Of a DNA stretch of 15,167 nt, positions 3-13,235 are shown one piece after another. The notes beneath the pieces are model-generated. The model searched no databases, was not told the origin of the DNA, and saw only the letters and a program-made list of their open reading frames with translations. How positions within the stretch are numbered: position 1 is the stretch's first letter; every line of letters begins with the position of its first letter. Where the stretch lies: positions 1 through 15,167 of the forward strand of contig VBLM01000033.1 in assembly GCA_005879095.1 (NCBI GenBank), read 5' to 3'. Origin of the DNA: Deltaproteobacteria bacterium (GTDB lineage: Bacteria > Myxococcota > Myxococcia > Myxococcales > 40CM-4-68-19). The position numbers and the translations under genes were made by a program.

Positions 3-656
3 AAAGTGCCCGATCAGGCCAAGGTGAAGCAGTTCCTGCCGCCATACGATCGCGGCGACCTGCTCCTGCACCCGGACAATCCGATCACGGTCGCGCCGCA
101 GGCGAACGAGGACTGGCTGATGGAGATCCGCCGCCAGACCGCTGCCGCGATGGAGCGATCGCCGACGGTCATCCGCGAAGCGTACGCGAGCTTCGAGAAG
201 ATCTTCGGCCGCAGCTACGGCAATCCGTTCTTCGAGGAGTACATGACCGAGGATGCCGACGTGGTGCTGATCGGCATGGGCACGTTGTCGATGCCGGTGA
301 AAGTGACCGTTCGTCAGCTCCGCGCCGAGGGAAAGAAGGTCGGGTTCGTGCGGATGCGCTGGTTCCGGCCGTTCGCGGCCGAGGACCTGGCGAAGACGCT
401 CGGGCGTTTCAAGGCGGTGGGCGTGATCGACCGCGACTTCTCGCTCGGCTCGCCGTACGAGAGCGGCGTGCTGGCGACGGAAGTGCGCGCGGCACTCTAC
501 GCGAGCGACAAACGGCCGCCGGTGGTCGGCTTCATCGCCGGCCTTGGCGGGCGCGAAGTGACGGTGCCCGACGTCCGGAGGATGAGCGAAATCGTCACCG
601 CTGCCGCTGAAGGAAAGCGGCAGCCTACGACCCAGTGGATCGGCCTGCGCGAGTAA
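3..656 (+). CDS. 2-oxoacid:ferredoxin oxidoreductase alpha subunit, C-terminal part (probable oxalate oxidoreductase); 5' end outside window
   Basis: The frame is already open at the window edge, so the gene starts upstream; the GTG at 6 lies inside coding sequence and is not taken as a start. The visible 217 codons match the C-terminal part of PorA-type alpha subunits. There is a substrate-loop region near QFLPPYDRGD followed by HPDNPITV. After it comes a Rossmann-like PFOR_II domain with DADVVLIGMGT, then RMRWFRPF and VIDRDFSLGSP. In this family the alpha subunit holds part of the 2-oxoacid site and pairs with a thiamine-diphosphate beta subunit, which begins 11 nt downstream. Family membership is clear. 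The substrate is not: calling it oxalate rather than pyruvate or 2-oxoglutarate rests on the oxalate-type transporter, synthetase and reductase downstream. The gamma/delta subunits would be expected upstream. It ends with TAA. Confidence 0.85.
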   Translation, partial: KVPDQAKVKQFLPPYDRGDLLLHPDNPITVAPQANEDWLMEIRRQTAAAMERSPTVIREAYASFEKIFGRSYGNPFFEEYMTEDADVVLIGMGTLSMPVKVTVRQLRAEGKKVGFVRMRWFRPFAAEDLAKTLGRFKAVGVIDRDFSLGSPYESGVLATEVRAALYASDKRPPVVGFIAGLGGREVTVPDVRRMSEIVTAAAEGKRQPTTQWIGLRE

Positions 657-662
657 AGGAGA
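655..662 (+). promoter_or_regulatory. Ribosome binding site of the beta-subunit gene
   Basis: AAAGGAGA overlaps the TAA stop of the alpha gene and sits 5 nt before ATG 668. It fixes the beta start at 668 rather than at the in-frame TTG/ATG-like triplets inside the end of the alpha gene, and suggests translational coupling of the two subunits. Confidence 0.75.
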
Positions 663-1244
663 CGAAGATGGCGATCTCAGACAGGGAAATGGCCGAGCTG
701 ACCAGGCTCCACACGCCCCAGAAGCTCGACCCGTTCAAAGGCGTGAAGAAGCTGCCGCTCGAGGAGTACTTCACCTCCGGACACCGCACCTGCCAGGGCT
801 GCGAGTCGGCGCTGGTGATGAAGCTGATGGTCAAGGCGGCGGGCCCGCGCACCATCGTGCTCGGCTCGACCGGCTGCATGTACGTCGCCAACACGACGTA
901 CTACAGCACGGCTTGGGTCGTGCCGTGGATGCACACGCAGCTCGGCTCGAGCGGCTCGGCTGCGCTCGGCGCGGCGGCGGCGCTGCGCGCGCTGATCAGG
1001 AAGAAGAAGATCAAGGACGAGCCGATCAACGTGATCGCCTTCTGCGGCGACGGCGGCGGCGCGGACATGGGCCTCTCGGCGATCTCGGCCACCCTGACGC
1101 ACCCCGAGTACAACTGCCTGATCCTCATGTACGACAACGAGTCGTACGCGAACACGGACATTCAACTGTCCGGCTCGACGCCGTACGGCGCGCACACCAC
1201 GTTCTCTCCTCCCGGCAGCAAGAAGCGGATCATGCACCACCGGT

Positions 1245-1249
1245 GGAAG
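1245..1249 (+). promoter_or_regulatory. Shine-Dalgarno-like GGAAG ahead of ATG 1256 (possible re-initiation site)
   Basis: GGAAG lies just before the TAG, with 6 nt between it and ATG 1256. A ribosome terminating at 1250-1252 would be well placed to restart there. The bases also encode the tail of RWK in the upstream frame, so the match may be chance. Confidence 0.3.
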
Positions 1250-1252
1250 TAG
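1250..1252 (+). other. In-frame amber codon inside the beta-subunit gene
   Basis: TAG lies between AAG (1247-1249) and AAC (1253-1255), in phase with ATG 668 and with TGA 1712-1714. Protein similarity to the beta family runs straight across it with no missing or extra residues. A single base substitution (for example AAG, CAG or GAG to TAG) explains it. TAG is also an ordinary terminator nearby, ending the OFA transporter (3288-3290) and the second transporter (6113-6115). A genome-wide amber reassignment is therefore unlikely. Confidence 0.95.
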
Positions 1253-1255
1253 AAC

Positions 1256-1714
1256 ATGGCGGCGATGATGGCGGCCGGTCATCCCTCGTGCCGATTCGTC
1301 TCCACCGTGTGCATGTCGTACCCGGTGCTGGCGATGAACGCGGTGCGCAGGTCCTTGAGCATCGGCGGGCCGACCTTCATCCACTCCCTCGACCCGTGTC
1401 CGAAAGGCTGGGACTACGACCCGATGCTCTCGCACGAGCTCGGCGAGCTGGCGGTGCAGACCGGCATCTGGCCGCTCTGGCAGGTCGAGGACCACAAGCT
1501 GAGCCTGATCGGAAAGACGCGCGACATCGCCGACGGACGGCTCAAGCGGCTGCCGGTGCGCGACTACCTGCTCAAGCAAGGCCGGTTCGCGCACTTCACC
1601 GACGAGGACATCGACTACTTCCAGTCGAAAGTCGACGAGACCTGGAACAAGTGGGTGATCCCCGGCATGATTCCAATTCACAAAGAGGTGGAGCAAGATC
1701 AGCCGCCCGCCTGA
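1256..1714 (+). CDS. C-terminal half of the beta subunit, possible separately translated fragment
   Basis: This 152-codon open frame starts at the first ATG after the amber codon and is the continuation of the beta subunit. It carries the LDPCPKGWDYDP region; its cysteine is the presumed fourth [4Fe-4S] ligand of the family. It also carries the C-terminal GRFAHFTDEDIDYFQ segment. Codon use is as GC-rich as upstream, with no sign of decay: no second stop or frameshift. If re-initiated, the enzyme would have a split beta subunit (194 + 152 aa) divided after the cofactor-binding core. If not, this stretch is silent. I see no basis for an independent function. Confidence 0.4.
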   Translation: MAAMMAAGHPSCRFVSTVCMSYPVLAMNAVRRSLSIGGPTFIHSLDPCPKGWDYDPMLSHELGELAVQTGIWPLWQVEDHKLSLIGKTRDIADGRLKRLPVRDYLLKQGRFAHFTDEDIDYFQSKVDETWNKWVIPGMIPIHKEVEQDQPPA

Positions 1715-1722
1715 CCCGACCG

Positions 1723-1727
1723 GGAGG
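1723..1727 (+). promoter_or_regulatory. Ribosome binding site deciding the OFA transporter start
   Basis: GGAGG is directly followed by one ATG (1728), which is too close, and by a second ATG (1734) at 6 nt spacing. This favours 1734 as the real start, removing two residues from the longest frame. Confidence 0.65.
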
Positions 1728-1733
1728 ATGGCC

Positions 1734-3290
1734 ATGGCCAATTCGATCGAGCATGCCGAGCAGCACCGCCTGCGCGACAACCGCTGGCTGATCCTCTTCT
1801 TCAGCATCGTCAGCATGGTGGCGGTGGCGAACTTCCAGTACGGATGGACGCTGTTCGTGCCGCCGCTGCAGAAGCATTTCGGGGCCGACGCAGCCGTCAT
1901 CCAGGTCACCTTCACCGTCTTCGTGCTGCTCGAGACCTGGCTGGTGCCGTTCGAAGGATGGCTGGTCGACAAGTTCGGTCCCAAGCTGCTGGTGCTGCTC
2001 GGCGGAATCGCGGCCGGCGCCGGTTGGCTCCTGAGCGGCACGGCCGAATCGCTCACCGCGCTCTATCTTTCGTATGCGCTGGCGGGCATCGGCGCGGGAA
2101 TCGTCTACGGCACCGCCATCGGCAGCGCGCTCAAGTGGTTCCCCGATCACCGCGGGCTCGCTGCCGGCCTGACCGCGGCCGGCTTCGGCGCGGGGTCCGC
2201 TTTCACCGTGGTGCCGATCGCGAACCTGATCAATTCAGCGGGCTACCAGACGGCGTTCAAGCAGTGGGGCGTGATCCAGGGCGCGGTGGTGGTGATCGCC
2301 TCGTTCTTCCTCCAGTCGCCGCCGGCGGGCTGGCTGCCGGAAGGCTGGCGCGAGACGCCCAAAGGTCAGGAGGTGAAGCACCGCCAGAGCGCGGTCGACT
2401 TCAACTCCAGCCAGATGGCGGAGACGCCGCAGTTCTGGATGATGTACCTGACCATGACGCTGGTCGCGACCGGCGGACTGATGGCGACCGCGCAGCTGAA
2501 CCCGATGGCGGTCGACTACAAGGTCGACAAGGTGCCCGTGCACTTCCTCTGGATCGCGCTGCCGGCGCTGCAGTTCGCGCTCTCCGCGGACAGGGTGCTG
2601 AACGGACTCTGCCGGCCGTTCTGGGGCTGGGTCTCCGATCACATCGGCCGCGAGAAGACGATGGCGCTCGCGTTCACGCTCGAAGCGATCGCGATCTTCT
2701 TCCTCATCAAGTTCGCCGCCAACCCGGTGCTCTTCGTCACCTTCAGCGCCTTCACCTTCTTCGGCTGGGGAGAGATCTACTCGCTGATGCCGGCCATCTG
2801 CGGCGACTTCTTCGGCCGCAAGCACGCCACTGCCAACTACGGATTTCTCTATACGGCGAAAGGAACCGCGTCGGTGCTGGTGCCGGTCGGTTCCGCCCTC
2901 GCGGCGGGGAAGGCGTTCGACTTCCGGGCCGACATCCTGCTGCTCATCGGCGGTCTGCTCGCGGTGTTCGCGCACTTCATCGCGCCCACCCTGCTTCGGC
3001 TGCGCCTCTCGAAGAAGCTGCACGACACGCTCTTCACCATCGGCCTCCTGACCGTCGCGTACGGCGTCTTCCTCACCGTGGTCCCGACGGCGTGGACGCC
3101 GTTTGGGGCGAAGGTCTCACTGCCGAAAGTCGGATGGACCGGCGTGTTCACGATCGCTATCGTCTTCGATCTGACCGCCGCCGTGCTCTCCTTCTTCGTC
3201 CTGCGGCGGATGAAAGTGCCGCAGATTGCCGACGTGCCGGCGTTCGCGTCGCCGCCGTCGCAAATGGCCGCGCCCGCGCTCAAAACCTAG
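1734..3290 (+). CDS. OFA-family MFS transporter, probable oxalate/formate antiporter
   Basis: 518 aa. The N-terminal half is typical of the OFA branch of the major facilitator superfamily: NFQYGWTLFV (33-42), ETWLVPFEGWLVD (67-79) and GTAIGSALKWFPDHRGLAAG (126-145). A second-half loop signature, NGLCRPFWGWVSDHIGRE, spans 290-307. In Oxalobacter OxlT, one Arg in helix 8 and one Lys in helix 11 bind oxalate. Here K376 in YTAKG is the likely Lys, and R287 or R294 the likely Arg (my alignment by eye). OxlT exchanges external oxalate for internal formate across the inner membrane. This protein may instead take up oxalate or export another product, since no formate-producing enzyme is seen here. 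I count about 14 hydrophobic segments; the last two (about 433-450 and 468-490) extend beyond the usual 12 and give about 100 extra residues over OxlT. It starts 19 nt after the beta gene. Confidence 0.85.
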   Translation: MANSIEHAEQHRLRDNRWLILFFSIVSMVAVANFQYGWTLFVPPLQKHFGADAAVIQVTFTVFVLLETWLVPFEGWLVDKFGPKLLVLLGGIAAGAGWLLSGTAESLTALYLSYALAGIGAGIVYGTAIGSALKWFPDHRGLAAGLTAAGFGAGSAFTVVPIANLINSAGYQTAFKQWGVIQGAVVVIASFFLQSPPAGWLPEGWRETPKGQEVKHRQSAVDFNSSQMAETPQFWMMYLTMTLVATGGLMATAQLNPMAVDYKVDKVPVHFLWIALPALQFALSADRVLNGLCRPFWGWVSDHIGREKTMALAFTLEAIAIFFLIKFAANPVLFVTFSAFTFFGWGEIYSLMPAICGDFFGRKHATANYGFLYTAKGTASVLVPVGSALAAGKAFDFRADILLLIGGLLAVFAHFIAPTLLRLRLSKKLHDTLFTIGLLTVAYGVFLTVVPTAWTPFGAKVSLPKVGWTGVFTIAIVFDLTAAVLSFFVLRRMKVPQIADVPAFASPPSQMAAPALKT

Positions 3291-3322
3291 GGCGCGAACC
3301 TGCGGCCCGAAGGGGGAGCTCG

Positions 3323-4726
3323 ATGCTCCAGGCAAGGGCGGGCCGCATGGTCGCAGTGTTGCTGTGCCTCGCACCAGCCGCGCTGCGCGCGGAGGAGACG
3401 AAAGATGCTGCGGGGGTGAATCCCGCGACGACGGGACCCGAGATCCCGTCCGACGTGAAGCCGCCTTCGACGGTGAAGACGTCCGAGATCACCATCTACG
3501 GCCGGCTCAACATCTCCCTCGACCACGGCACGCAGGGGTTCGGCGGCGTCACCTGCAACAACGCCAACTCGTGCGGCGCGGTGGGCGCGACGCCGCAAGG
3601 CGTCACCCGCTGGATGCCCGACATCGCCAGCAACCTCTCGCGCTTCGGGGTCCGCGGCGCGCACACCTTCGCCGACGGCTTGCAGGGCGTCTTCCAGATC
3701 GAAGCCGAGGTCTCCGCGGCGGCGACGCCGGGCGCGAAGAACAACGGCAACAACGACACCATCAATCCCGGCAACAACGCGGTCAGCGGCACGCTCGGCT
3801 CGCGCGATACCTTCGTCGGAGTCAGCACGCCGGCGGGCGCGATCAAGCTGGGCAAAGGCGACACGCCGTACAAGCGCGCCACGGCCGACTTCGACTTCCT
3901 CGCCGACACGCCCGGCGACTACAACAGCATCATGGGGAATACCGGCGGCGACAACCGGACCGAGTTCGACGCCCGCTTCCCGCACGCCATCTGGTACGAG
4001 TCGCCCAACGTCGGCTTCGCCACCAGCGAGACCGTCTGCGCGGGCGGCAACTCCGGACCGTGCAATGACGGCTCCTTCGGCGACGGGTACAGCGTGGCGG
4101 TGCAGTTCGAAGGGTTGGGGCTCAAGGCCATCGCCAGCTACGAGATGCACAAGAGCAGCAACCGCACCGGCGACGCGGGCCAGACGACCGCGTTCGGCAC
4201 CTCCGCGGTGGGAACCGGCGACGAAAGCGCGGTCAAGGTCGGCGCGAAATATACCATCGCTCTTTCGGGCACGACCGTGGCCGGCATCTTCGAGGACATG
4301 CGCCGGCGCGATGCGATGCCGTGGAACGAGCGGCAGCGCAGCGGCTTCTATTTCTCGGCGCAGCAGAAGTTCGCCGGCGGGAACGAGCTGATGGCGGGAT
4401 TTGCCCACGCCGGGAAGTCGCCGGGCGACCCGACCAGCGGCCCGGTCGACAACCAGGCCAACATGTTCGGCGTCGGGTTCAAGCATTGGTTGTACGAGAA
4501 GGCGACCGTCTATCTGACTTACGCTTATCTCGCCAACGAAGCCGGCGCGCACTATGCGCTGGGTCCCGGCGGGCACGGCGTGACGTGGGATTGCAAGGAC
4601 GGCGGTGGCCCGGGGTCCTTCGTCGACTCGACCGGCGCGCCGATCGGCCTGGAGAAGAACGGCACCGCCTGTTTCACCGGCACCACCATCCAGGCGTTCT
4701 CGCTCGGCATGACGTACGACTTCTGA
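3323..4726 (+). CDS. Outer-membrane general porin
   Basis: 467 aa. Residues 1-23 form a signal peptide: a basic start, hydrophobic VAVLLCLAPAAL, and predicted cleavage after LRA before EETKD. The mature chain opens with a proline-rich spacer and then SEITIYGRLNISLDHG (about 54-69), the first strand of general porins. Alternating polar/hydrophobic strands follow, and the last residues are MTYDF; a terminal Phe is the recognition signal for outer-membrane assembly. Family members of the Gram-negative porin group are usually 350-400 aa, so this one has long loops. Cysteines in the loops (CNNANSC, CAGGNSGPC, and one near each end of the last loop) are unusual for porins and may pair. ATG 3323 follows GGGAG (3314-3318) by 4 nt; ATG 3347 would also leave a signal peptide. 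Its place directly after the OFA carrier suggests it lets oxalate or related anions into the periplasm. Confidence 0.85.
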   Translation: MLQARAGRMVAVLLCLAPAALRAEETKDAAGVNPATTGPEIPSDVKPPSTVKTSEITIYGRLNISLDHGTQGFGGVTCNNANSCGAVGATPQGVTRWMPDIASNLSRFGVRGAHTFADGLQGVFQIEAEVSAAATPGAKNNGNNDTINPGNNAVSGTLGSRDTFVGVSTPAGAIKLGKGDTPYKRATADFDFLADTPGDYNSIMGNTGGDNRTEFDARFPHAIWYESPNVGFATSETVCAGGNSGPCNDGSFGDGYSVAVQFEGLGLKAIASYEMHKSSNRTGDAGQTTAFGTSAVGTGDESAVKVGAKYTIALSGTTVAGIFEDMRRRDAMPWNERQRSGFYFSAQQKFAGGNELMAGFAHAGKSPGDPTSGPVDNQANMFGVGFKHWLYEKATVYLTYAYLANEAGAHYALGPGGHGVTWDCKDGGGPGSFVDSTGAPIGLEKNGTACFTGTTIQAFSLGMTYDF

Positions 4727-4771
4727 CGAGCGCCGCGAGCGCGGCCACGGCGCGGGACGCCAGCGGGAGGG

Positions 4772-4794
4772 GGCACAGTGTAATAGGTTGTGCC
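4772..4794 (+). promoter_or_regulatory. Inverted repeat around a -10-like box at the start of the second transporter gene
   Basis: GGCACA (4772-4777) and TGTGCC (4789-4794) are perfect inverted copies, separated by 11 nt that contain TAATAG (4781-4786), a fair sigma-70 -10 box. The right arm covers the GTG proposed as start (4790-4792). It could be an operator over an internal promoter, or a small hairpin that limits ribosome access. No good -35 box is visible, and a 6-bp repeat can arise by chance. Confidence 0.3.
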
Positions 4795-6115
4795 GGTGCA
4801 CGTCCCAGTGAGCCCGACCACTCCGCAGTTGGGGCACATGCTGCCGTTGTGGAGCGTAGTTCCCTTCGCGATGATGCTTCTCGCCATCGCGGTGCTGCCG
4901 CTCCTGGCGGGCAGATTCTGGGAGCGAAACCGCAACAAGCTGCTCCTCAGCGCCCTGTTGGGCGCGCCGGTGGCGATCTGGACGGCGACGCTCGACCCCG
5001 CAGCGGTGCTGCACACTGCCAGCGAATATGTGGCGTTCATGGTCCTGCTCGGGGCTCTCTTCGTCATCGCGGGTGGCATCGTCGTGCGCGGGACGCTGGC
5101 GGGGACGCCGGGCCTGAACAGCATCCTGCTCGGCGCCGGCGCGGTGCTCGCCTCCGTGATCGGCACCACCGGCGCGTCGATGTTGCTGGTGAGACCGCTC
5201 TTGCGCGCAAACTCGGTGCGCGAGCGGAAGGCGCATATCTTCGTCTTTCTCATCTTCATGGTCGCCAACGCAGGGGGCTTGCTCACCCCAATGGGCGATC
5301 CGCCGCTGTTTCTCGGATTCCTTCGCGGGGTGCCGTTCACCTGGACGCTGCGGCTGTGGCGGCAGTGGCTGCTGGTGAACGGGAGCCTGCTGATTCTCTT
5401 CTACATCGTCGATTCCACCATCTTCCGCCGCGAAGACCTCTCCCGGCCCGGCGACCTCGACCGCATCGCCGTGGAGCACCAGGTTCCGCTCAGCATCGCG
5501 GGAAAGCGGAACCTGCTCTTCCTGGCCGCGGTGATGGGAGCGCTGGTCCTGTCGGGCACGCTCGGGTTACCGGTCCTTTTGCAGGACGCGGCGATCCTGG
5601 TCCTCATCGGCCTCTCCTGGATGCTGACGCCCAGACTGTGGCGGGTTGAGAACGGATTCGGCTGGTCTCCCTTGATCGAGGTGGCCGCTCTCTTCGCGGG
5701 GATTTTCGCCACCATGATTCCGGCGCTCGCGATCCTGAACGCCCGCGGTGCGGAGCTCGGGCTCCAGCTCCCCTGGCATTACTTCTGGGCGAGCGGCGCG
5801 CTCTCGTCGTTTCTGGACAATGCGCCCACCTATTTGACCTTCGCCTCGGCCGCCAGCGGCAGCCTGGGAACGGACGCCGACCATCTGGCCCAACTGTTGG
5901 CCAGCGAGCGCGGAGCGGCGCTGCTCGCCGCCATCTCGCTGGGGTCCGTCTTGATGGGAGCGAACACCTACATCGGAAACGGTCCGAACTTCATGGTCAA
6001 GGTCATCGCGGAAGAGGGCGGCGTCCGCATGCCCGGCTTCTTCGGGTACATGGGATACGCCGCCGTTATCCTGCTGCCGCTCTTCGTGGTCGTGACCTGG
6101 GCGTTCCTGATCTAG
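4790..6115 (+). CDS. Polytopic ion transporter superfamily protein (CitMHS/NhaD/ArsB-like, sodium:proton antiporter annotation group)
   Basis: 441 aa from GTG 4790. The start is uncertain: no clear ribosome site precedes it, and ATG 4838 (residue 17), at the edge of the first hydrophobic segment, is a good alternative. About 11-12 hydrophobic segments are visible. Two re-entrant-loop-like conserved stretches are typical of the superfamily: NAGGLLTPMGDPP (160-172) in the first half, and SSFLDNAPTY (339-348) plus GANTYIGNGPN (390-400) in the second. Relatives are often annotated as Na+/H+ antiporters or citrate-type carriers; few have been tested. Sitting between the porin and the oxalyl-CoA synthetase, it may carry a small dicarboxylate or keep ion balance during oxalate uptake. 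That is inference from position only. It ends with TAG. Confidence 0.7.
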   Translation: MPVHVPVSPTTPQLGHMLPLWSVVPFAMMLLAIAVLPLLAGRFWERNRNKLLLSALLGAPVAIWTATLDPAAVLHTASEYVAFMVLLGALFVIAGGIVVRGTLAGTPGLNSILLGAGAVLASVIGTTGASMLLVRPLLRANSVRERKAHIFVFLIFMVANAGGLLTPMGDPPLFLGFLRGVPFTWTLRLWRQWLLVNGSLLILFYIVDSTIFRREDLSRPGDLDRIAVEHQVPLSIAGKRNLLFLAAVMGALVLSGTLGLPVLLQDAAILVLIGLSWMLTPRLWRVENGFGWSPLIEVAALFAGIFATMIPALAILNARGAELGLQLPWHYFWASGALSSFLDNAPTYLTFASAASGSLGTDADHLAQLLASERGAALLAAISLGSVLMGANTYIGNGPNFMVKVIAEEGGVRMPGFFGYMGYAAVILLPLFVVVTWAFLI

Positions 6116-6158
6116 CGACTGCGAGTGACGCGGTGGGTCGTGGTAGACCTTGCCCCCG

Positions 6159-7679
6159 ATGGACTCTCTCCCCTCGCTGCTCTTGCGCGGCGCCGGCGAT
6201 GCGGCCGCGATCTCCGCTCCGGAGGGCAAGCCGCTCTCGTACCAGGGGCTGCGCGAGATGGCGGCGCGGACGGTCGAGCGCCTCAACGGCCTGGGAATCG
6301 GGCGCGGCGATCGGGTGGCGGTGGTCCTGAACAACGGGCCGGAGATGGCGGCGGTCTTCGTCTCGATCGCCGCCGGCGCCGCGATCGCGCCGCTCAATCC
6401 CGGATACCGTACCGATGAGTTCGATTTCTATCTCGGCGATCTGACGCCGAAGGCGCTGGTCATCGAGGCCGGGCTCGATTCGCCCTCGCGGGCGGTGGCG
6501 GCGCGGCTGGGCGTGCCGATCGTCGAGGTGCACGCCGATCGCCCGAGCGGCGCGGGCAGCTTTCGCCTCGAGCCGCTGGCGCCGATGCCGGGCCGCGCTT
6601 CGTCGCCCGGGCCGGGAGCGTCCGACGACGTGGCGCTCCTGTTGCACACCAGCGGCACCACCTCGCGTCCCAAGCTGGTGCCTTTGTTGCAGCGCAATCT
6701 CGTCGCCTCCGCCGGCCACATCGGCCGCGTGCTGGCTCTGTCACCCGCCGACTGCTGCCTGAACATCATGCCGCTGTTCCACATCCACGGACTGATCGCG
6801 GGCGTGCTCGCCTCGCTCGGTGCCGGAGCGCAGGTCTGCTGCACGCCGGGGTTCAACGCGCTGCGCTTCTTTCACTGGCTCGACGAAGTGCGGCCGACCT
6901 GGTGGACCGGCGTGCCCGCCATGCACCGCGCGATTCTCGAGCGCGCCCCGCGCCATCCGGAGAGCCTGAAGCGCCTCCGGCTGCGGCTGATCCGCTCGTC
7001 GTCGGCATCGCTGCGGCCGGCGCTGATGACCCGGATCGAGGAGACCTTCAACGTGCCGGTGATCGAATCGTACGGAATGACCGAGGCCGCGCACCAGATG
7101 GCGTCGAACCCGCTGCCGCCGCTCGCGCGCAAGCCCGGCTCGGTCGGGCGCGCTGCGGGGCCGCAGATCGGGATCCTGGGCGAGGGCGGAAAGCTCCTGC
7201 CGACCGGCGAGTCGGGCGAGATCGTGGTGCGCGGCCCGAATCTGTTCGAGGGGTACGTGAACAATCCCGAGGCCAACACGGCCGCGTTCGCCGACGGCTG
7301 GTTCCGCACCGGCGACCAGGGCGTGCTCGACGAGGAAGGGTATCTGCGCATCAACGGACGGCTGAAGGAGATGATCAACCGCGGCGGCGAGAAGATCTCG
7401 CCGATCGAGGTGGACACGGTGCTTCTCGAGCACCCCGCCGTGCAGCTGGCGCTGACCTTCGCCGTGCCGCACGAGAAGCTCGGCGAGGAGGTGGCGGCGG
7501 CGATCGTCATCCGCGAGGGCAGGACTGCGACCGAGCGTGAGCTGCGCGAGTTCGCCTCGAAGCACCTGGCCCATTACAAGGTGCCGCACAAGTTCGTCTT
7601 CGTGAAAGAGCTTCCCCGCGGACCGACGGGGAAGCTGCAGCGCATCGGGCTCGCCGCCAAGCTGGGCCTCGGGTCATGA
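6159..7679 (+). CDS. AMP-forming acyl-CoA synthetase, probable oxalate--CoA ligase (AAE3/Pcs60 type)
   Basis: 506 aa from ATG 6159; an upstream TTG at 6150 adds only three residues and no ribosome site supports it. ANL-superfamily core motifs are complete: phosphate loop HTSGTTSRPK (163-172), YGMTE (305-309), TGD (384-386), hinge RLKEMINRGGEKISP (401-415), and catalytic K492 in PTGKLQR. Several stretches match plant AAE3 and yeast Pcs60 oxalyl-CoA synthetases rather than generic long-chain enzymes: PLFHIHGL (205-212), RSSSASL (279-285), and the TEA-H-MASNPLPP run (308-321). The residues I recall as oxalate contacts in Arabidopsis AAE3 appear conserved as H208, S282 and H312. The reaction would be oxalate + ATP + CoA to oxalyl-CoA + AMP + PPi in the cytoplasm. 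Its last codons overlap the reductase gene by 4 nt, so the two are probably co-translated. Medium-chain or malonate-like substrates cannot be excluded. Confidence 0.8.
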   Translation: MDSLPSLLLRGAGDAAAISAPEGKPLSYQGLREMAARTVERLNGLGIGRGDRVAVVLNNGPEMAAVFVSIAAGAAIAPLNPGYRTDEFDFYLGDLTPKALVIEAGLDSPSRAVAARLGVPIVEVHADRPSGAGSFRLEPLAPMPGRASSPGPGASDDVALLLHTSGTTSRPKLVPLLQRNLVASAGHIGRVLALSPADCCLNIMPLFHIHGLIAGVLASLGAGAQVCCTPGFNALRFFHWLDEVRPTWWTGVPAMHRAILERAPRHPESLKRLRLRLIRSSSASLRPALMTRIEETFNVPVIESYGMTEAAHQMASNPLPPLARKPGSVGRAAGPQIGILGEGGKLLPTGESGEIVVRGPNLFEGYVNNPEANTAAFADGWFRTGDQGVLDEEGYLRINGRLKEMINRGGEKISPIEVDTVLLEHPAVQLALTFAVPHEKLGEEVAAAIVIREGRTATERELREFASKHLAHYKVPHKFVFVKELPRGPTGKLQRIGLAAKLGLGS

Positions 7680-8656
7680 AAGTCTGCGTCTACGGCGCCG
7701 GCGCCATCGGCGGATTCATCGGCGCCAGGCTCGCGCTCGCCGGCGAGGACGTGACGCTGATCGCGCGCGGTCCGCATCTGAAGGCGATGCGGCAGAATGG
7801 CCTCAAGCTGATCTCGGAAGGAAAGACCGAGGTGGTGCGGCTGCGCTGCACCGACGACGCGCGTGAGGTCGGCGCGCAGGACTACGTGATCCTCAGCGTC
7901 AAGGCGCACGCGTTGCGGTCGATCGCGGATTCGGTGCAGCCGCTGCTCGCCGATCACACCGCGCTGGTGCCCACCATCAACGGCGTTCCCTGGTGGTACT
8001 TCTACAAGGCCGGCGGGCCTTACGAGAACACGCGCTTGAAGAGCGTCGATCCCGACGGAACGCTCTGGGAAAAGCTGCCGCCTGCGCGGGTGATCGGTTG
8101 CATCGTCTATCCGGCGGTGGACGTGGTCGAGCCCGGCGTGCTCGAGCACACGTATTCGAATCGGTTCGACCTCGGCGAGCCCGATGGGTCGAAGAGCGAG
8201 CGAGCGCAGGCGTTTTCGCAGGCGATGATCAAGGCCGGGTTCCGCTGTCCCGTGCGGCCGCGCATCCGCGAGAACCTGTGGGTCAAGCTGTGGGGGAATC
8301 TTTCCTTCAACATGATCTGCTCGCTGACCACCGCCACGCTCGACGTCGTCACCGGCGATACCGGCACGCGCGCGGCCTCGCGCACGATGATGCTCGAGGC
8401 GCAGGCGGTCGCGGAAAAGCTCGGCGTGACTTTTCCTCTCGACGTAGACGAGCGGATCAAGGGCGCCCACGAAGTCGGCGCGCACAAGCTGTCGACGCTG
8501 GTCGATCTCGAGCGCGGCCGGCCGATGGAGATCGAGCCGCTGCTCGGCGCGGTGGTCGAGATGGGCCGGCTGGTCGATCTGCCGATGCCGGCGTGCGATA
8601 TCGTCTTGGCGCTGGTGCGGCAGCGCGCCCGCGTCGCGGGTCTTTACCCCGGGTGA
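7676..8656 (+). CDS. Ketopantoate reductase (PanE/ApbA) family protein, probable oxalyl-CoA reductase (PanE2 type)
   Basis: 326 aa. It has an N-terminal NAD(P) Rossmann fold with YGAGAIGGFIG (6-16). The C-terminal helical domain keeps K204 (VKLWGN), N208 and E285 (MEIEP), which align with the catalytic Lys, Asn and Glu of ketopantoate reductase. In Methylobacterium extorquens a PanE homologue (PanE2) acts with an oxalyl-CoA synthetase to reduce oxalyl-CoA to glyoxylate for assimilation; I cite this from memory. The ATGA overlap (7676-7679) with the oxalate-CoA ligase-like gene argues for that role rather than pantothenate synthesis. The loop PWWYFYKAGGPYENTRLKSVDPDG (about 105-128) is longer than in E. 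coli PanE and could be a CoA-substrate feature. The specific substrate remains inferred. Confidence 0.75.
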   Translation: MKVCVYGAGAIGGFIGARLALAGEDVTLIARGPHLKAMRQNGLKLISEGKTEVVRLRCTDDAREVGAQDYVILSVKAHALRSIADSVQPLLADHTALVPTINGVPWWYFYKAGGPYENTRLKSVDPDGTLWEKLPPARVIGCIVYPAVDVVEPGVLEHTYSNRFDLGEPDGSKSERAQAFSQAMIKAGFRCPVRPRIRENLWVKLWGNLSFNMICSLTTATLDVVTGDTGTRAASRTMMLEAQAVAEKLGVTFPLDVDERIKGAHEVGAHKLSTLVDLERGRPMEIEPLLGAVVEMGRLVDLPMPACDIVLALVRQRARVAGLYPG

Positions 8657-8659
8657 ACG

Positions 8660-9061
8660 ATGCCTCTCACGTCGGATGAAGCGCGGCGATTGATCGAAGC
8701 GGCACACAAGCGCGCGGGCGAGATCGGCATTCGCGTCTGTGTGGCCATCGTCGACGAGGGCGGGCTGTTGCAGGCGCTTCAGCGAATGGACGGCGCGCCG
8801 CCGTTGTCGGCGCAAATCGCCGAGTGCAAGGCGAACGGTGCGGCGCTGACGCTGCGCGACGGGGCGGCGATGGCGCAACTGCATCAAGAGAGGCCGGCAT
8901 TCTTCGCGCTGGTGTCCGGGCTCACCCGCGTGCCGGCGGTCCCGGGGCTCGGCTCGGTGCTGATCAAGCGCGGCAGCTCGGTGCTGGGTGCGGTCGGCGT
9001 CAGCGGCGGCAAGCCCGAGCAGGATCTCGACTGCGCCGAGGCGGGGTTGCGGTCGCTGTGA
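8660..9061 (+). CDS. GlcG/HbpS family small protein
   Basis: 133 aa, starting 3 nt after the reductase stop, so it is the last gene of the unit. It matches the GlcG/HbpS (PF03928-type) fold. It has an N-terminal helix (EARRLIEAAHKRAGEIG), strand VCVAIVDEGG (27-36), and a LQRMDGAPPLS turn leading into SAQIAECKANGAA. The C-terminal glycine-rich GAVGVSGGKPEQDLDCAEAG segment is very typical. GlcG is named from the glycolate-utilisation operon; HbpS binds haem in Streptomyces. The function in catabolic operons is unknown. Its linkage to a likely glyoxylate-forming reductase echoes the glycolate/glyoxylate association but does not define a reaction. No signal peptide is visible, so it is probably cytoplasmic. 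Confidence 0.8.
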   Translation: MPLTSDEARRLIEAAHKRAGEIGIRVCVAIVDEGGLLQALQRMDGAPPLSAQIAECKANGAALTLRDGAAMAQLHQERPAFFALVSGLTRVPAVPGLGSVLIKRGSSVLGAVGVSGGKPEQDLDCAEAGLRSL

Positions 9062-9068
9062 AGCCGTG

Positions 9069-9809
9069 TCAGGTCATCGTCGTGCCGCCGTCGACGACGA
9101 GGACTTCGCCGGTGACGTAGGAGGATGCGTCGGAGGCGAGATAGAGGGCGGCGGATGCGATTTCGTCCGGCGTGGCCACGCGGCCGAGCGGCGTTCGCTT
9201 CAGCCATTCCTGCGACAGTGAGTCGTCCTTGACGATCGCGCTCGCCAGCCGCGTGTCGACGAGACCCGGCGCGATCGCATTCACCCGGATGCGCGCCGGC
9301 CCGAGCTCGAGCGCGAACGTCCGCGTCATCGAGATCACCGCCGCCTTGGTCATCCCGTACACGCCCTGCAACGGCGCCGCGCGCAGGCCGCTGACGCTCG
9401 AGACGTTGACGATCGCGCCGGGCGCGCCGCGATCGACGAGGTGCCGCGCCACTTCGCGCGTGGTCCAGAAGTAGCCCTTGAGGTTCACCTCGAACGTCTT
9501 GTCCCAGGCCGCTTCCGGCGCTTCGATCAGCGGCCCGAAGTACGGATTGGTGCCGGCGTTGTTGACGAGAATGTCGACCTTGCCGAAGACGCGGACGGCT
9601 TCCGCGATCAGCGCGACGCAGTCCGCTTCCTTGCCGGTGTGCGCGGCAAACGCATGCGCCGACGGTCCCAACGCCGCGGCGGTGTCGATCTTGCGCGAAG
9701 CGAGGACGACGCGCGCGCCCTGTTCGACGAACAGCTTCGCGATCGCCGCGCCGATTCCGCGCGACGCGCCGGTGACGACCGCGACGCGATCCTGCAAGGA
9801 GAAGGTCAT
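9069..9809 (-). CDS. Classical short-chain dehydrogenase/reductase (FabG-like)
   Basis: 246 aa. Classical SDR motifs are complete: cofactor loop TGASRGIG (13-20), NNAG (83-86), catalytic N109 region, S138 (NVSSVSG), and Y151/K155 (YGMTK). The C-terminal PGLVDT and ALYLASDASSYVTGEVLVVDGG are also standard. ASRK at 37-40, after the second strand, suggests a preference for NADPH, because a basic residue stands where NADH enzymes have Asp. The substrate cannot be read from sequence; homologues reduce many keto compounds or oxidise alcohols. It converges on the GlcG gene with only 7 bp between the stops and diverges from the EAL gene. It is therefore probably not part of the oxalate unit. GGAG lies only 2 nt before the ATG, a poor spacing, so initiation may be leaderless. 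Confidence 0.88.
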   Translation of the reverse strand: MTFSLQDRVAVVTGASRGIGAAIAKLFVEQGARVVLASRKIDTAAALGPSAHAFAAHTGKEADCVALIAEAVRVFGKVDILVNNAGTNPYFGPLIEAPEAAWDKTFEVNLKGYFWTTREVARHLVDRGAPGAIVNVSSVSGLRAAPLQGVYGMTKAAVISMTRTFALELGPARIRVNAIAPGLVDTRLASAIVKDDSLSQEWLKRTPLGRVATPDEIASAALYLASDASSYVTGEVLVVDGGTTMT

Positions 9810-9867: not shown

Positions 9868-10962
9868 TTGAGCCGGATCACTCCATCCGCTCCCCCCGAA
9901 CCGGCCAATTCGATCGCGCGCGCCCTCCACCAGCGCCTGCCGGAGCGCATCCGCGGCGCCGGCACGTTGTATCTCTGGCTGCGTCCGGGCCGCATCGCCG
10001 GGCACGCGACCAAATGCCTGCGCGACGCGGGCCGCTGGCACGAGTTCGTCGACTCCTGCGTCCGCATTCCGCTGCGCGAGAGCGAAGTCCAGGTCTGCAC
10101 CGGCGAGCTGGCGTCGACGCTGACCGAAGAGGAAGCGCTCGAAACACGCGCGCTCTTCATGCCCGGCCATTCGCCGCCGCAGCTTCCCGACTTCGGACGC
10201 ATGAGCACGCTGCACGCGCTCGACGTGCTGGCGCAGTCGGGCTGGCTGCTCGATCAGCTCGCCGAAGGGCGCTTCACCAGCTTCTTCCACCCCATCGTGC
10301 ACGCGAGCGACACCAGCCGCGTCTTCGCCCACGAAGCGCTTCTGCGCGGCGTCGAGCGCGACGGCAGCCTGGTCGCGCCCCAGCCGATCCTCTCGCTCGC
10401 GCGCGAAGCGGGCCTCTTGAACGAAGTCGATTCCGCCGCCTGTCGATCGGCGATCCGCGAAGCCGCGCGGCACGGCCCGGAGATGTGCGTGTTCATCAAT
10501 TTCTCGCCGGCCGCCATCGAGGACCCCGCCGCGAATCTCGCCGGCACGGTGGAGGCCATCGAGGAGGCCGGCCTGCCGCGCGATCGCGTCGTCTTCGAGG
10601 TGGTGGAGGCCGACCGCTTCGGCAACGCGCCGCTTCTCGACGAAGTCCTGCGCGGATACCGGCGCGCGGGCTTTCGCGTCGCGCTCGACGACCTCGGCGC
10701 CGGCTGGTCGACGTTGAATCTCGTGCACCGGCTGCGTCCGGACTTCATCAAACTCGACAGAGAGCTGATCCACGGCGTGCACCAGGACCCGGTCAAGGGC
10801 CTCATCGCGTCGCACTTGCTCGAGATCGGCCGTGGAATGGGCATCGCCACCATCGTCGAGGGGATCGAGGTGCCGGAGGAGCTGGCCTGGGTGCGCGAGC
10901 ACGACGCAGACTTCGTGCAGGGATTTCTCCTCGGCAGGCCGCAGCCTGTGGCGAGGGGTTGA
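9868..10962 (+). CDS. EAL-domain cyclic-di-GMP phosphodiesterase with uncharacterised N-terminal region
   Basis: 364 aa from TTG 9868. An in-frame TAG at 9853-9855 blocks any longer form, and the next ATG is far inside, so a TTG start is the best reading. The EAL domain covers about 125-362 and keeps the residues needed for Mg2+ binding and c-di-GMP hydrolysis: E156 (EALLRG), N211 (INFSP), E244 or E247, D274-D275 (DDLGAG), K295 (IKLD), E331 (VEGIE) and Q351 (VQGF). An active enzyme that makes pGpG is therefore likely. Residues 1-110 do not match a sensor domain that I recognise; they include GTLYLWLRPGRIAGH (32-46). No membrane segment is visible, so it is cytoplasmic. It shares one base with the GGDEF-EAL gene that follows, suggesting a common transcript and related control. 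Confidence 0.83.
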   Translation: MSRITPSAPPEPANSIARALHQRLPERIRGAGTLYLWLRPGRIAGHATKCLRDAGRWHEFVDSCVRIPLRESEVQVCTGELASTLTEEEALETRALFMPGHSPPQLPDFGRMSTLHALDVLAQSGWLLDQLAEGRFTSFFHPIVHASDTSRVFAHEALLRGVERDGSLVAPQPILSLAREAGLLNEVDSAACRSAIREAARHGPEMCVFINFSPAAIEDPAANLAGTVEAIEEAGLPRDRVVFEVVEADRFGNAPLLDEVLRGYRRAGFRVALDDLGAGWSTLNLVHRLRPDFIKLDRELIHGVHQDPVKGLIASHLLEIGRGMGIATIVEGIEVPEELAWVREHDADFVQGFLLGRPQPVARG

Positions 10963-13235
10963 TGCATCCCAGGTTGCGCCGACAGCTCGAGTCCGCCGGC
11001 AAAGCGCAGGTGCCGGCGGAGTGGCGAAAGCTCGTCGAATCGATCGATGCGGCGTATCGCGCCGCCGATGCCGACAAGGAGCTGCTCGAGGAATCGGTCA
11101 GAGCGCTGACCGCGCTGCTGGCCCGCGCGCAGGCGTCTCGAACGGAGTCGGTGGAGCGCAAGGCGCAGCGCCTGGAAAAGATGGCCCGGGCGGGACGGCG
11201 GCTCACCCGCGCGCTCGAGAAGAGCCGGCTGGCGGTGCTCGAGCTGGCGCCGGACCTGACCATCCGCAGCGCCAACGCTTCGGCGCAGAAGATCTGCGGC
11301 ATCGACCAGCTTTCCGGCCGCGCGCTTCTCTCGGTGCTGGAGCCGCTCGATGCGGAAGTGATCGCGGAGAAATGGCGCAAAAGGCTCGCCCGCGGCATTC
11401 CGGTGGCGCGCACGCTGGCATGCTCGGCGCGCGACGGACGCGCGCTGGCGTGCGACTTCGTCTGCCTGCCGCGCCTGCGCAAGGATGGAAAGCTGGCGCG
11501 CGTCACGGTCCTCGTGCGCGATCAAACCGAGACGGTCGAGAAGCAGGACGCGCTGCGCGAACGCGAAGAGCGCTACACACTGGCGCTGGCGGGAGCGGCC
11601 GACGTGGTGTGGGACTGGGACCTGCGCGCGTCGCGGCTGACGCTCTCGTCGCGCTGGCGCGAGATCCTCGGTCTTTCCACGGCGCTCTCCGGCGCGCCCT
11701 CGGACTGGCTCGATCGCGTGCATCCGGAAGACGCCGCGCCTTTGCGCGCCGCGCTGGCCTCCCACTTCGAGGGGCGCACCGCGTCGCTGGAGCACGAGCA
11801 CCGCGTCCGCCACGCCGATGGCGACTGGCGCTGGCTCGCAGTGCGCGGCGCGGCCAGGCGTGACACCTCCGGCGCTGCCATCCGCGTGGCCGGCCTGATG
11901 AGCGACGTCACCCGGCACCGCCTCGTGGTCGAGCGGATGGCGCACGATGCCCGCCACGACGCGCTCACCGGATTGCCGAATCGGACGCTGTTCCTCGATC
12001 TGCTTCGCCATTCCTTTTATCGAACGCGCCGTCACGAGGATTATCGATTCGCCGTGCTCTTCATCGACATCGACCGCTTCAAGACGGTCAACGATGCCTT
12101 CGGCCACGAGGCCGGCGATCAACTGCTGCAGCAGATCGCCCGGCGGCTGGAATCGTGCCTGCGCGAAGGCGACACGCTGGCGCGCCACGGCGGCGACGAG
12201 TTCACCATGTGGCTCGACGACGTGCGCGGCGCTGCCGACGCCATTCGCGTGGCCGACCGGGTGCACGAGGTGATGCGCGAGCCGTTCGAGCTGAGCGGCC
12301 AGAAAGTCAGCTCCAGCGCCAGCATCGGCGCGGCGGTCGGGTCCTCCAATTACAAGCAGGCCGAGGACGTGCTGCGCGACGCCGACGTGGCGATGTACCG
12401 CGCCAAGGCGCTGGGCAAGGCGCGCACCTCCGTCTTCCAGCGCGAGGCGGGCGAGACTCCGCCGCCCAGCATGCTGCAGATGGAGACCGACTTGCGCAGC
12501 GCTCTTTTGCGCAACGAGCTCTTGCTCCACTACATGCCGATCGTCGACGTCGCGACCGGCAAGGTGAGAGGACTCGAGGCGCTGGCGCGCTGGCAGCACC
12601 CGCGGCTGGGCCTGGTGCAGCCGGCCAAGTTCCTCTCGCTGGCGATGGAGACAGGGCTGATCGTCTCCATCGATCAATGGGTGCTGCGGACCGCGAGCCG
12701 CCAGCTGCACGACTGGCGGCGCGAGCTGGCGGGAGCCGCGAAATGTTCGATCTCGGTGAATTTTTCCCAGAAGCTTCTCGAAGAGCGCGACCTCGGATCG
12801 CAGATCGATCGCGTGCTGCGCGATGCGCACCTGGCGCCTGCCGATCTCAATCTCGACATCAACGAGAGCTCGATGAACAACGGCGACGCGCCTTCGCGCG
12901 GGATGATCGCCGAGCTGCACCAGCGCGGGCTCGGCCTGCACATGGATGATTTCGGCACCGGCAAGTTGTGGCTCCGGCACCTGCACGCGAGCGACGTGGA
13001 TTCGATCAAGATCGACCGCTCGTTCCTTTCCGAGCGGCAGATCCTCTCGCGGCTGGTCTCGATGGCGCGCGAGCTGGGCAAGAAAGTCATCGCCGAAGGA
13101 GTCGAGACCGCCGAGCAGCTGCGGCTGGTGCGCGAGGTCGGTTGCGAGCAGGCGCAGGGGTTCTTCTTCACGCCGCCGCTCGACGTGATCAAGGCGCGCT
13201 CGCTTTTGCAGGGCGGAGTGATGGACGTCGTCTGA
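10962..13235 (+). CDS. PAS-PAS-GGDEF-EAL cyclic-di-GMP signalling protein
   Basis: 757 aa from ATG 10962, within TGATG at the end of the EAL gene; the much longer open frame upstream is an antisense/shadow artefact. Domain order: helical, charged N-terminus likely to be coiled coil (about 34-88); PAS-like domain (about 90-190); second PAS with its C-terminal motif (about 205-320, including WDWDL, HPEDAA and MSDVTRHR); GGDEF domain (about 330-495); EAL domain (about 505-750). The cyclase site GGDEF (410-414) and the inhibitory RxxD (R401-D404) are intact. In the EAL domain E539, N600, E635, D662-D663, K683, E712 and Q732 are kept, so both activities are possible. In the loop after DDFGTG the usual YSSL is KLWL, which may weaken the hydrolase. 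No membrane segment is present; the PAS pair would sense a cytoplasmic ligand or redox state. Confidence 0.9.
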   Translation: MHPRLRRQLESAGKAQVPAEWRKLVESIDAAYRAADADKELLEESVRALTALLARAQASRTESVERKAQRLEKMARAGRRLTRALEKSRLAVLELAPDLTIRSANASAQKICGIDQLSGRALLSVLEPLDAEVIAEKWRKRLARGIPVARTLACSARDGRALACDFVCLPRLRKDGKLARVTVLVRDQTETVEKQDALREREERYTLALAGAADVVWDWDLRASRLTLSSRWREILGLSTALSGAPSDWLDRVHPEDAAPLRAALASHFEGRTASLEHEHRVRHADGDWRWLAVRGAARRDTSGAAIRVAGLMSDVTRHRLVVERMAHDARHDALTGLPNRTLFLDLLRHSFYRTRRHEDYRFAVLFIDIDRFKTVNDAFGHEAGDQLLQQIARRLESCLREGDTLARHGGDEFTMWLDDVRGAADAIRVADRVHEVMREPFELSGQKVSSSASIGAAVGSSNYKQAEDVLRDADVAMYRAKALGKARTSVFQREAGETPPPSMLQMETDLRSALLRNELLLHYMPIVDVATGKVRGLEALARWQHPRLGLVQPAKFLSLAMETGLIVSIDQWVLRTASRQLHDWRRELAGAAKCSISVNFSQKLLEERDLGSQIDRVLRDAHLAPADLNLDINESSMNNGDAPSRGMIAELHQRGLGLHMDDFGTGKLWLRHLHASDVDSIKIDRSFLSERQILSRLVSMARELGKKVIAEGVETAEQLRLVREVGCEQAQGFFFTPPLDVIKARSLLQGGVMDVV

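What the first reader, a model, noticed from the sequence alone, without database searches (positions are those of the whole stretch)
3..9061. Oxalate catabolic unit joining ferredoxin-linked oxidation with an oxalyl-CoA synthetase/PanE2-type assimilation branch
Seen: eight same-strand genes with gaps of 63 nt or less: 2-oxoacid:ferredoxin oxidoreductase alpha and beta, OFA antiporter, porin, a second transporter, AAE3-like synthetase, PanE-like reductase, and GlcG. Known: OFA carriers move oxalate; AAE3/Pcs60 enzymes make oxalyl-CoA; a PanE homologue in Methylobacterium reduces oxalyl-CoA to glyoxylate; Moorella has a ferredoxin-linked oxalate oxidoreductase. Inferred: one operon carries import across both membranes, an energy branch (oxalate to CO2 plus reduced ferredoxin) and a carbon branch (oxalate to oxalyl-CoA to glyoxylate), without formyl-CoA transferase or oxalyl-CoA decarboxylase in view. 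I do not know of a described system with this combination.
Basis: partly seen in the sequence, partly recalled or inferred. Interest (0 to 1): 0.8.

Follow-up and report, generated by a model that had tools for sequence, protein, structure and literature searches.

The report
Two-branch oxalate-eating gene cluster
This stretch of a soil bacterium's genome carries what looks like a kit for living on oxalate, one enzyme burning it for energy and two others turning it into building material, in a combination that recurs in uncultured soil bacteria and that we found no published description of.

Summary
The eight same-strand genes are there (3-9061, gaps at most 63 nt), with two corrections: alpha is cut by the contig end, and beta carries an in-frame TAG at 1250-1252. 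Relatives supply the missing front: a GntR regulator and a fused gamma/delta subunit. The oxidoreductase groups with Moorella oxalate oxidoreductase (OOR), not with the pyruvate enzyme tested (100/100 clade); 70 of 71 related alphas that reach the region carry the OOR motif YPIRP, and the other keeps its Arg. The synthetase's nearest solved relatives are oxalate-CoA ligases; the reductase belongs to the subfamily of PanE homologues found near frc or OFA genes in Cupriavidus and Methylobacterium. The synthetase-reductase pair lies beside OOR in Myxococcota and Acidobacteriota; one locus adds malate synthase-like and aminotransferase genes on the same strand. Oxc and Frc over cut-off: 0 of 44 OOR genomes each. 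Against tight coupling: the synthetase occurs in 20 of 93 relatives without a close OOR, and 27 of 44 OOR genomes lack it. A new pathway variant built from known enzymes.

The parts
3..656 (+). Oxalate oxidoreductase (OOR) alpha subunit, C-terminal 217 aa only (contig starts here)
   Evidence: NCBIfam best NF045791 OxalOxredalpha 178.4 bits, PorA_Arch 177.9 close behind; PDB best 5c4i_A oxalate oxidoreductase 151 bits against 104 for a pyruvate enzyme; 90% identical to the complete alpha of congener G002
668..1714 (+). OOR beta subunit (ThDP-binding), frame interrupted by TAG at 1250-1252
   Evidence: NF045792 OxalOxredbeta best for the first piece, PorB slightly ahead for the second piece; PDB best 5c4i_C for the first piece; uninterrupted in 9 of 9 relatives aligned
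1728..3290 (+). Oxalate/formate-type MFS antiporter (OFA)
   Evidence: TIGR04259 514.6 bits, cut-off 335; also over the SfMCT lactate-transporter cut-off, 339.5 against 320
3323..4726 (+). Outer-membrane porin
   Evidence: PF13609 Porin_4 70.9 bits; 55% identical porin on G002 contig C175, opposite in strand to its neighbours
4790..6115 (+). CitMHS_2 carboxylate transporter, substrate unknown
   Evidence: PF16980 507 bits; 77% identical gene about 4.5 kb downstream of OOR, other strand, in G005
6150..7679 (+). AAE3-like oxalate-CoA ligase (oxalyl-CoA synthetase)
   Evidence: best four distinct PDB sequences are oxalate-CoA ligases 5ie0, 6qjz, 8aff, 8atd (420, 404, 359, 251 bits; next malonyl-CoA synthetase 220 bits)
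7676..8656 (+). PanE/ApbA-type reductase, probable oxalyl-CoA reductase
   Evidence: NF005089 469.9 bits, cut-off 223; same subfamily as PanE homologues near frc in Cupriavidus metallidurans and near OFA in Methylobacterium bullatum
8660..9061 (+). GlcG/HbpS-like small protein, role unknown, kept after AAE3-PanE in G001 and G002
   Evidence: PF03928 106.7 bits; synteny

Best explanation
A two-branch oxalate catabolic unit. A porin and the OFA antiporter (perhaps also the CitMHS_2 carrier) bring oxalate in. Energy branch: a ThDP and iron-sulfur oxalate oxidoreductase (gamma/delta-alpha-beta) oxidises oxalate to two CO2 without CoA and passes two low-potential electrons to ferredoxin or a similar carrier, which feeds the respiratory chain. 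Carbon branch: the AAE3-like ligase makes oxalyl-CoA with ATP, and the PanE-type reductase reduces it to glyoxylate, which malate synthase or a transaminase takes into central metabolism. Without an oxalyl-CoA decarboxylase to supply formyl-CoA, the classical CoA-transferase has no donor, which would explain why a ligase is used instead. Shown by sequence: family membership, the diagnostic OOR motif in relatives, recurrent clustering, no curated-level Oxc or Frc. Inferred: substrates, directions, electron acceptor, co-transcription, the reason for the ligase.
For: Subunit assignments to OOR. Of 80 loci, 71 have an alpha reaching the motif: 70 read YPIRP and 1 (L031, G010) reads YAIRP, so all 71 keep the Arg; 9 of 9 other OFOR paralogues from the same order read YPITP. 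YPIRP is described as the OOR form of YPITP (PMC5020499, passages). Tree. OFA or a Tct carrier in 66 of 80 OOR loci; AAE3 plus PanE in 7 of 80, plus the window, plus G002 if its two contigs join, as a 52-nt end overlap suggests. In L061 malate synthase-like, class-V aminotransferase, AAE3, PanE, GntR, OOR and OFA matches lie on one strand; in G010, of the window's family, a malate synthase over its cut-off precedes an AAE3 remnant and PanE. Ligase nearest to oxalate-CoA ligases. Cupriavidus necator: PanE2-like ApbA2 near frc-oxc, its deletion slows growth on oxalate (PMC7486775, passages). Oxc and Frc over cut-off: 0 of 44 each; of 14 control genomes one is over each cut-off (E. coli for Frc; not named for Oxc). 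Haem-copper oxidase in 9 of 9 OOR genomes tested.
Against: No biochemistry. The window's beta is interrupted. AAE3 is present in 20 of 93 relatives without a close OOR beta, with PanE after it in 4 of 4 such loci examined, so the pair does not depend on OOR. 27 of 44 OOR genomes show no AAE3 at E 1e-85, among them all 8 Rokubacteria tested. Moorella's plug-loop Asp116 is Ala in the soil clade. OOR NCBIfam scores lie below the curated cut-offs even for complete subunits. Sub-threshold Oxc homologues exist, up to 537 bits in a Rokubacterium, and Frc homologues up to 494. L061's malate synthase and aminotransferase score below their cut-offs. OFA also passes a lactate-transporter cut-off.
Confidence: 0.75

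Rival explanations
1. The oxidoreductase is a pyruvate or other 2-oxoacid:ferredoxin oxidoreductase, and the neighbouring genes serve another carboxylate.
For: Few residues set OFOR substrate range (PMC5020499, passages); PorA and PorB profiles score fairly close to the OOR profiles (360 against 394, 277 against 328 bits); Moorella's Asp116 is missing.
Against: Arg in place of the Thr of YPITP in 71 of 71, NRALDDPGAFG, close to Moorella's DRTLDPPGDFG, in 74 of 80 loci, the other 6 being gapped or without that region, grouping with Moorella OOR, OFA carrier over its cut-off, an oxalate-CoA-ligase-like neighbour.
Confidence: 0.1
2. OOR does burn oxalate, but the AAE3-PanE pair is a separate module (detoxification of oxalate or glyoxylate, or another acid) that merely sits nearby.
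For: The pair occurs without a close OOR in Myxococcota, and off the OOR contig in G001, G005 and several Acidobacteriota.
Against: Side by side with OOR in two phyla with different gene order; with OFA on loci that carry no OOR (Methylobacterium bullatum L140, G016 L143); with glyoxylate-related genes in Acidobacteriota.
Confidence: 0.15
3. The carbon branch runs backwards: PanE oxidises glyoxylate to oxalyl-CoA, and OOR then disposes of oxalate formed inside the cell.
For: The Cupriavidus enzyme is described as a reversible CoA-acylating glyoxylate dehydrogenase (PMC7486775, passages).
Against: A ligase is a poor way to release oxalate from oxalyl-CoA (inference); an OFA carrier and a porin are in the operon; malate synthase or aminotransferase genes stand beside the pair in some loci.
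Confidence: 0.05
4. A decaying locus in this genome: OOR is inactivated by the stop in beta and only the carbon branch works.
For: TAG at 1250-1252; AAE3 looks broken in G010 and the alpha of G008 lacks about 65 residues.
Against: Purifying selection on both sides of the stop; a fragmented, 62%-complete assembly makes a consensus error plausible; intact copies exist in congeners.
Confidence: 0.15

Closest known systems
Moorella thermoacetica oxalate oxidoreductase (PDB 5c4i, 5exd, 5exe)
   Same: alpha, beta and fused gamma/delta organisation, Arg of the YPIRP motif, Arg109 and Phe117 positions, ferredoxin-like dicluster region
   Different: A separate clade; Asp116 replaced by Ala, with an Asp three residues earlier (NRALDDPGAFG against DRTLDPPGDFG); longer gamma/delta chain (389 against 315 aa); 9 of 9 genomes tested have haem-copper oxidases; beside GntR, OFA or Tct and in part the ligase-reductase pair
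Classical aerobic oxalotrophy: Frc/Oxc plus PanE2 or ApbA2 (Methylobacterium extorquens, Cupriavidus necator)
   Same: Two branches, one for reducing power and one through oxalyl-CoA to glyoxylate (PMC7486775, passages)
   Different: Energy branch is OOR, not Frc/Oxc; oxalate is activated by a ligase, not a CoA-transferase; no Oxc or Frc over cut-off in 44 genomes
Methylobacterium bullatum megaplasmid OFA-FAH-PanE-AAE3 cluster (L140)
   Same: OFA, AAE3 (61% identical) and PanE (50%) together
   Different: No OOR subunit recognised by eye among the called genes of the 16.9-kb stretch (the whole genome was not searched); an extra FAH-family gene
Oxalate-CoA ligases AAE3 and Pcs60 (5ie0, 6qjz, 8aff; plant and yeast origin recalled)
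   Same: Nearest solved relatives of the synthetase
   Different: Eukaryotic, in oxalate degradation or detoxification (recalled), not in a bacterial OOR operon

Membership tests
Oxalate oxidoreductase (OOR) | Best sequence match among OFOR families is OOR for each subunit | tested here: met
   NCBIfam best NF045790, NF045791, NF045792 for the complete G002 subunits, and for alpha and the first beta piece of the window; PDB best 5c4i chains. Exception: the second beta piece of the window scores PorB above OOR beta (107 against 98 bits)
Oxalate oxidoreductase (OOR) | Score over the NCBIfam curated cut-offs for OOR subunits | tested here: not met
   alpha 394 of 500, beta 328 of 590, delta 98 of 230 bits for the complete G002 subunits
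Oxalate oxidoreductase (OOR) | Arg31 in a YPIRP motif of alpha | tested here: met
   70 of 71 loci with the region read YPIRP, 1 (G010) YAIRP; tested in relatives only, the window's own region is off the contig
Oxalate oxidoreductase (OOR) | Arg109 of alpha | tested here: met
   Aligned Arg in G002; NRALDDPGAFG in 74 of 80 loci, the other 6 gapped or without that region
Oxalate oxidoreductase (OOR) | Asp116 in the plug loop (bait and switch) | tested here: not met
   Ala in the soil clade; retained in the second OOR of L047
Oxalate oxidoreductase (OOR) | Oxidises oxalate with ferredoxin, CoA not needed | not testable with these tools
   needs purified enzyme
Oxalate-CoA ligase (AAE3/Pcs60) | Nearest characterised relatives are oxalate-CoA ligases | tested here: met
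   best four distinct PDB sequences; NCBIfam has no such model above threshold, the best being FadD7-like, below its cut-off
Oxalate-CoA ligase (AAE3/Pcs60) | Pocket residues His214, Ser289, His319 of 5ie0 (role recalled) | tested here: met
   aligned identical; that they bind oxalate is recalled, not read
PanE2/ApbA2 oxalyl-CoA reductase | Same subfamily as homologues with an oxalate gene context | tested here: met
   NF005089 for the window and for homologues in C. metallidurans (Frc about 5.4 kb away) and M. bullatum (OFA and AAE3 nearby)
PanE2/ApbA2 oxalyl-CoA reductase | Similarity to the proteins with genetic or biochemical evidence (M. extorquens PanE2, C. necator ApbA2) | not tested
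   those sequences were not fetched; another PanE homologue on a Skermanella plasmid has no oxalate gene in its annotated neighbourhood
OFA oxalate/formate antiporter | Over the TIGR04259 cut-off | tested here: met
   514.6 bits, cut-off 335
[quoted passage not shown]
   0 of 44 OOR genomes over the cut-off for TIGR03254 and 0 of 44 for TIGR03253; G000 is 62% complete, but G001, G002 and G005 are 96-100%

The most novel reading that the evidence does not exclude
A widespread and so far uncharacterised route of oxalate use in uncultivated soil and groundwater bacteria: a distinct soil clade of oxalate oxidoreductase, with a changed plug loop, supplies low-potential electrons to bacteria that also carry haem-copper oxidases, and in part of them (Myxococcota, Acidobacteriota) it is genetically joined to an ATP-dependent oxalyl-CoA synthetase, PanE reductase and glyoxylate-consuming branch, bypassing Frc and Oxc.
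Probability: 0.6. Interest if true: 0.8.

Novelty: new variant of a known kind. Interest (0 to 1): 0.7.

Why it matters
Oxalate is a large carbon pool in soils (recalled), and oxalotrophs are commonly sought by frc and oxc genes (for example PMC12927642, passages). If this unit works as read, bacteria of several phyla use oxalate without those markers and would be missed by such surveys. It would also take oxalate oxidoreductase, characterised from the anaerobe Moorella, into bacteria with aerobic respiratory oxidases, and would show how lack of the decarboxylase goes with a switch from CoA transfer to an ATP-dependent ligase.

Tried and rejected
Pyruvate-enzyme reading: held unlikely on motif, profile and tree. 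Chance neighbourhood: held unlikely because the OOR plus AAE3-PanE cluster recurs in a different order in Acidobacteriota. AAE3 as a marker specific to OOR: rejected, since 20 of 93 relatives without a close OOR beta carry it. CitMHS_2 as a conserved part: not supported (0 of 80 loci; near OOR only in G005). GlcG: 0 of 80 loci, though kept after PanE in G001 and G002. Promoter and terminator scans gave nothing useful. Searches of the paper library for soil or MAG reports of OOR and for PanE2 or oxalyl-CoA reductase with it showed no description of this combination in the listings and passages I saw; the library holds open-licence papers only. One paper says Tectomicrobia may use oxalate for energy; the passages I saw do not name the enzyme. 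No structure was predicted.
Full report
What is there. The window is the start of a contig (C213) of a fragmented genome, 3.78 Mb in 791 contigs, 62% complete. Its nearest relatives in the species collection are MAGs labelled Deltaproteobacteria or Myxococcales: the contig lengths of G001, G002, G008 and G010 equal those of VBLC01000111.1, JAIVGS010000009.1, VBKL01000083.1 and VBKO01000473.1. Eight same-strand genes run from 3 to 9061, and an SDR gene on the other strand follows at 9069-9809. Alpha is cut by the contig end, and beta has an in-frame TAG.

The missing front end. Relatives supply it. In G002 (L022), G005 (L026) and G008 (L024) the order is GntR-type regulator, fused gamma/delta subunit of about 390 aa, alpha, beta; OFA follows in G002 and G008, a Tct-type carrier in G005. 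The gamma/delta chain matches OOR delta best in NCBIfam and in the PDB.

Is it an oxalate oxidoreductase? The complete G002 alpha matches Moorella OOR alpha at 347 bits against 226 for a pyruvate enzyme. PMC5020499 (passages) describes YPIRP as the OOR form of the YPITP motif, with Arg31, Arg109 and Asp116 as key residues. Of the 80 loci, 71 have an alpha that reaches the motif: 70 read YPIRP and one, L031 (G010, in the window's own family), reads YAIRP; all 71 keep the Arg. Nine of nine other OFOR paralogues from the same order read YPITP. NRALDDPGAFG is in 74 of 80 loci; in the other 6 the alpha is gapped there (L029), cut or not on the locus. The soil clade thus keeps Arg31 and Arg109 but has Ala at Moorella's Asp116. 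In a tree of 32 alphas the 20 soil sequences, Moorella OOR and a second OOR of L047 form one group with 100/100 support, apart from one pyruvate enzyme and the nine YPITP paralogues; the program warns of long branches, among them the pyruvate enzyme. NCBIfam scores stay below the curated cut-offs even for full-length subunits, so these are OOR by kinship, not by that rule.

How widespread. The scan of genome contigs found 281 loci encoding a relative of beta; the best 80 were returned, and their titles all begin with MAG. They include Acidobacteria, Rokubacteria, Armatimonadetes, Methylomirabilota, Deltaproteobacteria, Gammaproteobacteria and others. An OFA or Tct carrier is on the locus in 66 of 80 (OFA 27, Tct 40), a GntR gene in 58 of 80, AAE3 with PanE in 7 of 80; many loci are cut short by contig ends.

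The carbon branch. The synthetase's best four distinct PDB relatives are oxalate-CoA ligases (420, 404, 359 and 251 bits), ahead of malonyl-CoA synthetase at 220. The reductase is in NCBIfam NF005089. Homologues on plasmids: in C. metallidurans a formyl-CoA transferase over its cut-off lies about 5.4 kb downstream, beside a ThDP enzyme whose best match is acetolactate synthase, not Oxc; in Methylobacterium bullatum the order is OFA, FAH-family, PanE, AAE3, with AAE3 61% and PanE 50% identical to the window's; in a Rhodobacteraceae plasmid AAE3 and PanE are adjacent, downstream of an ABC transporter; in a Skermanella plasmid a PanE homologue has no annotated oxalate gene around it. PMC7486775 (passages) reports for C. 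necator that ApbA2, 51% identical to M. extorquens PanE2, lies near frc-oxc, that its deletion slowed growth on oxalate, and that deleting frc-oxc abolished growth on oxalate, presumably for lack of reducing power. That is the same two-branch logic with other enzymes.

Do the branches belong together? In G008 the pair is divergent from GntR-OOR-OFA. In G002 two contigs share an exact 52-nt end overlap within OFA; if they join, porin (opposite strand), AAE3, PanE and GlcG follow OOR-OFA, without CitMHS_2. In the Myxococcaceae MAG L030 the pair follows OOR and Tct. In Acidobacteriota L036, L038, L041, L047 and L061 the pair is upstream of GntR-OOR on the same strand; L036, L041, L047 and L061 add a class-V aminotransferase (best profiles aspartate-glyoxylate or pyridoxamine-pyruvate transaminase, below cut-offs), and L061 a malate synthase-like gene (310.7 bits, cut-off 594.5). 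In G010 a malate synthase over its cut-off (753.5) precedes an AAE3 remnant and PanE. Malate synthase A matches occur in 9 of 9 genomes tested (5 over the cut-off), including a fragment in G000.

Results against tight coupling. Of 99 genomes (the own one and 98 relatives), 25 have AAE3 at E 1e-85. Six of the 99 have the close OOR beta; 5 of these 6 have AAE3, as do 20 of the other 93. In 4 of 4 such OOR-free loci read, PanE follows AAE3 (in G016 after an FAH-family gene), with OFA in one. Of 44 OOR genomes, 17 have AAE3 and 16 have PanE at the thresholds used; in G001 and G005 the pair is not on the OOR contig. So OOR and AAE3-PanE look like two portable modules that have been brought together more than once.

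No classical route at curated level. TIGR03254 (Oxc) and TIGR03253 (Frc): 0 of 44 OOR genomes over the cut-off for each. Of 14 control genomes one is over each cut-off: E. coli for Frc, not named in the output for Oxc. Sub-threshold homologues occur, the highest in Rokubacteria (537 and 494 bits).

Mechanism. Import; OOR oxidation to CO2 for reductant; ligation and reduction to glyoxylate for carbon. The electron acceptor is not known. All 9 OOR genomes tested have haem-copper oxidase genes, so an aerobic or microaerobic life is likely. L047 carries, right after the soil-type OOR, a second OOR with Moorella-type motifs and an NAD(P)-binding GltD-like subunit, which hints at a pyridine-nucleotide-linked variant.

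Verdict. I saw no description of this combination in the held library, which lacks most subscription papers.

Noticed in passing
window 1250-1252: In-frame TAG inside OOR beta; intact copies exist in relatives, and selection on both sides is purifying.
   Followed up: yes
L047:11147-16027: Second OOR with Moorella-type motif (LDPPGDFG) next to the soil-type one, with an NAD(P)-binding GltD-like subunit beside it.
   Followed up: partly
L031/L025 (G010) alpha: The only alpha of 71 in which the OOR motif reads YAIRP instead of YPIRP.
   Followed up: partly
window 9868-10962 and 11031-13235: EAL-domain protein and PAS-GGDEF-EAL protein downstream of the unit; two genes of similar length and start follow GlcG in G001 (L125).
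   Followed up: partly
window 13324-14376: HAD-like hydrolase and cupin domain in one open frame.
   Followed up: no
L140:7107-7883 and L143:6887-7672: FAH-family gene among OFA, PanE and AAE3 in Methylobacterium bullatum and G016; role unknown.
   Followed up: partly
L024/L029 (G008) alpha: OOR alpha lacks about 65 internal residues (alignment gap at 129-193), though the frame is open.
   Followed up: no
L052, L062, L064, L066-L070 (Rokubacteria): OOR mostly with Tct carriers, and no AAE3 or PanE at the thresholds used in the 8 genomes tested; OOR may serve energy only there.
   Followed up: partly
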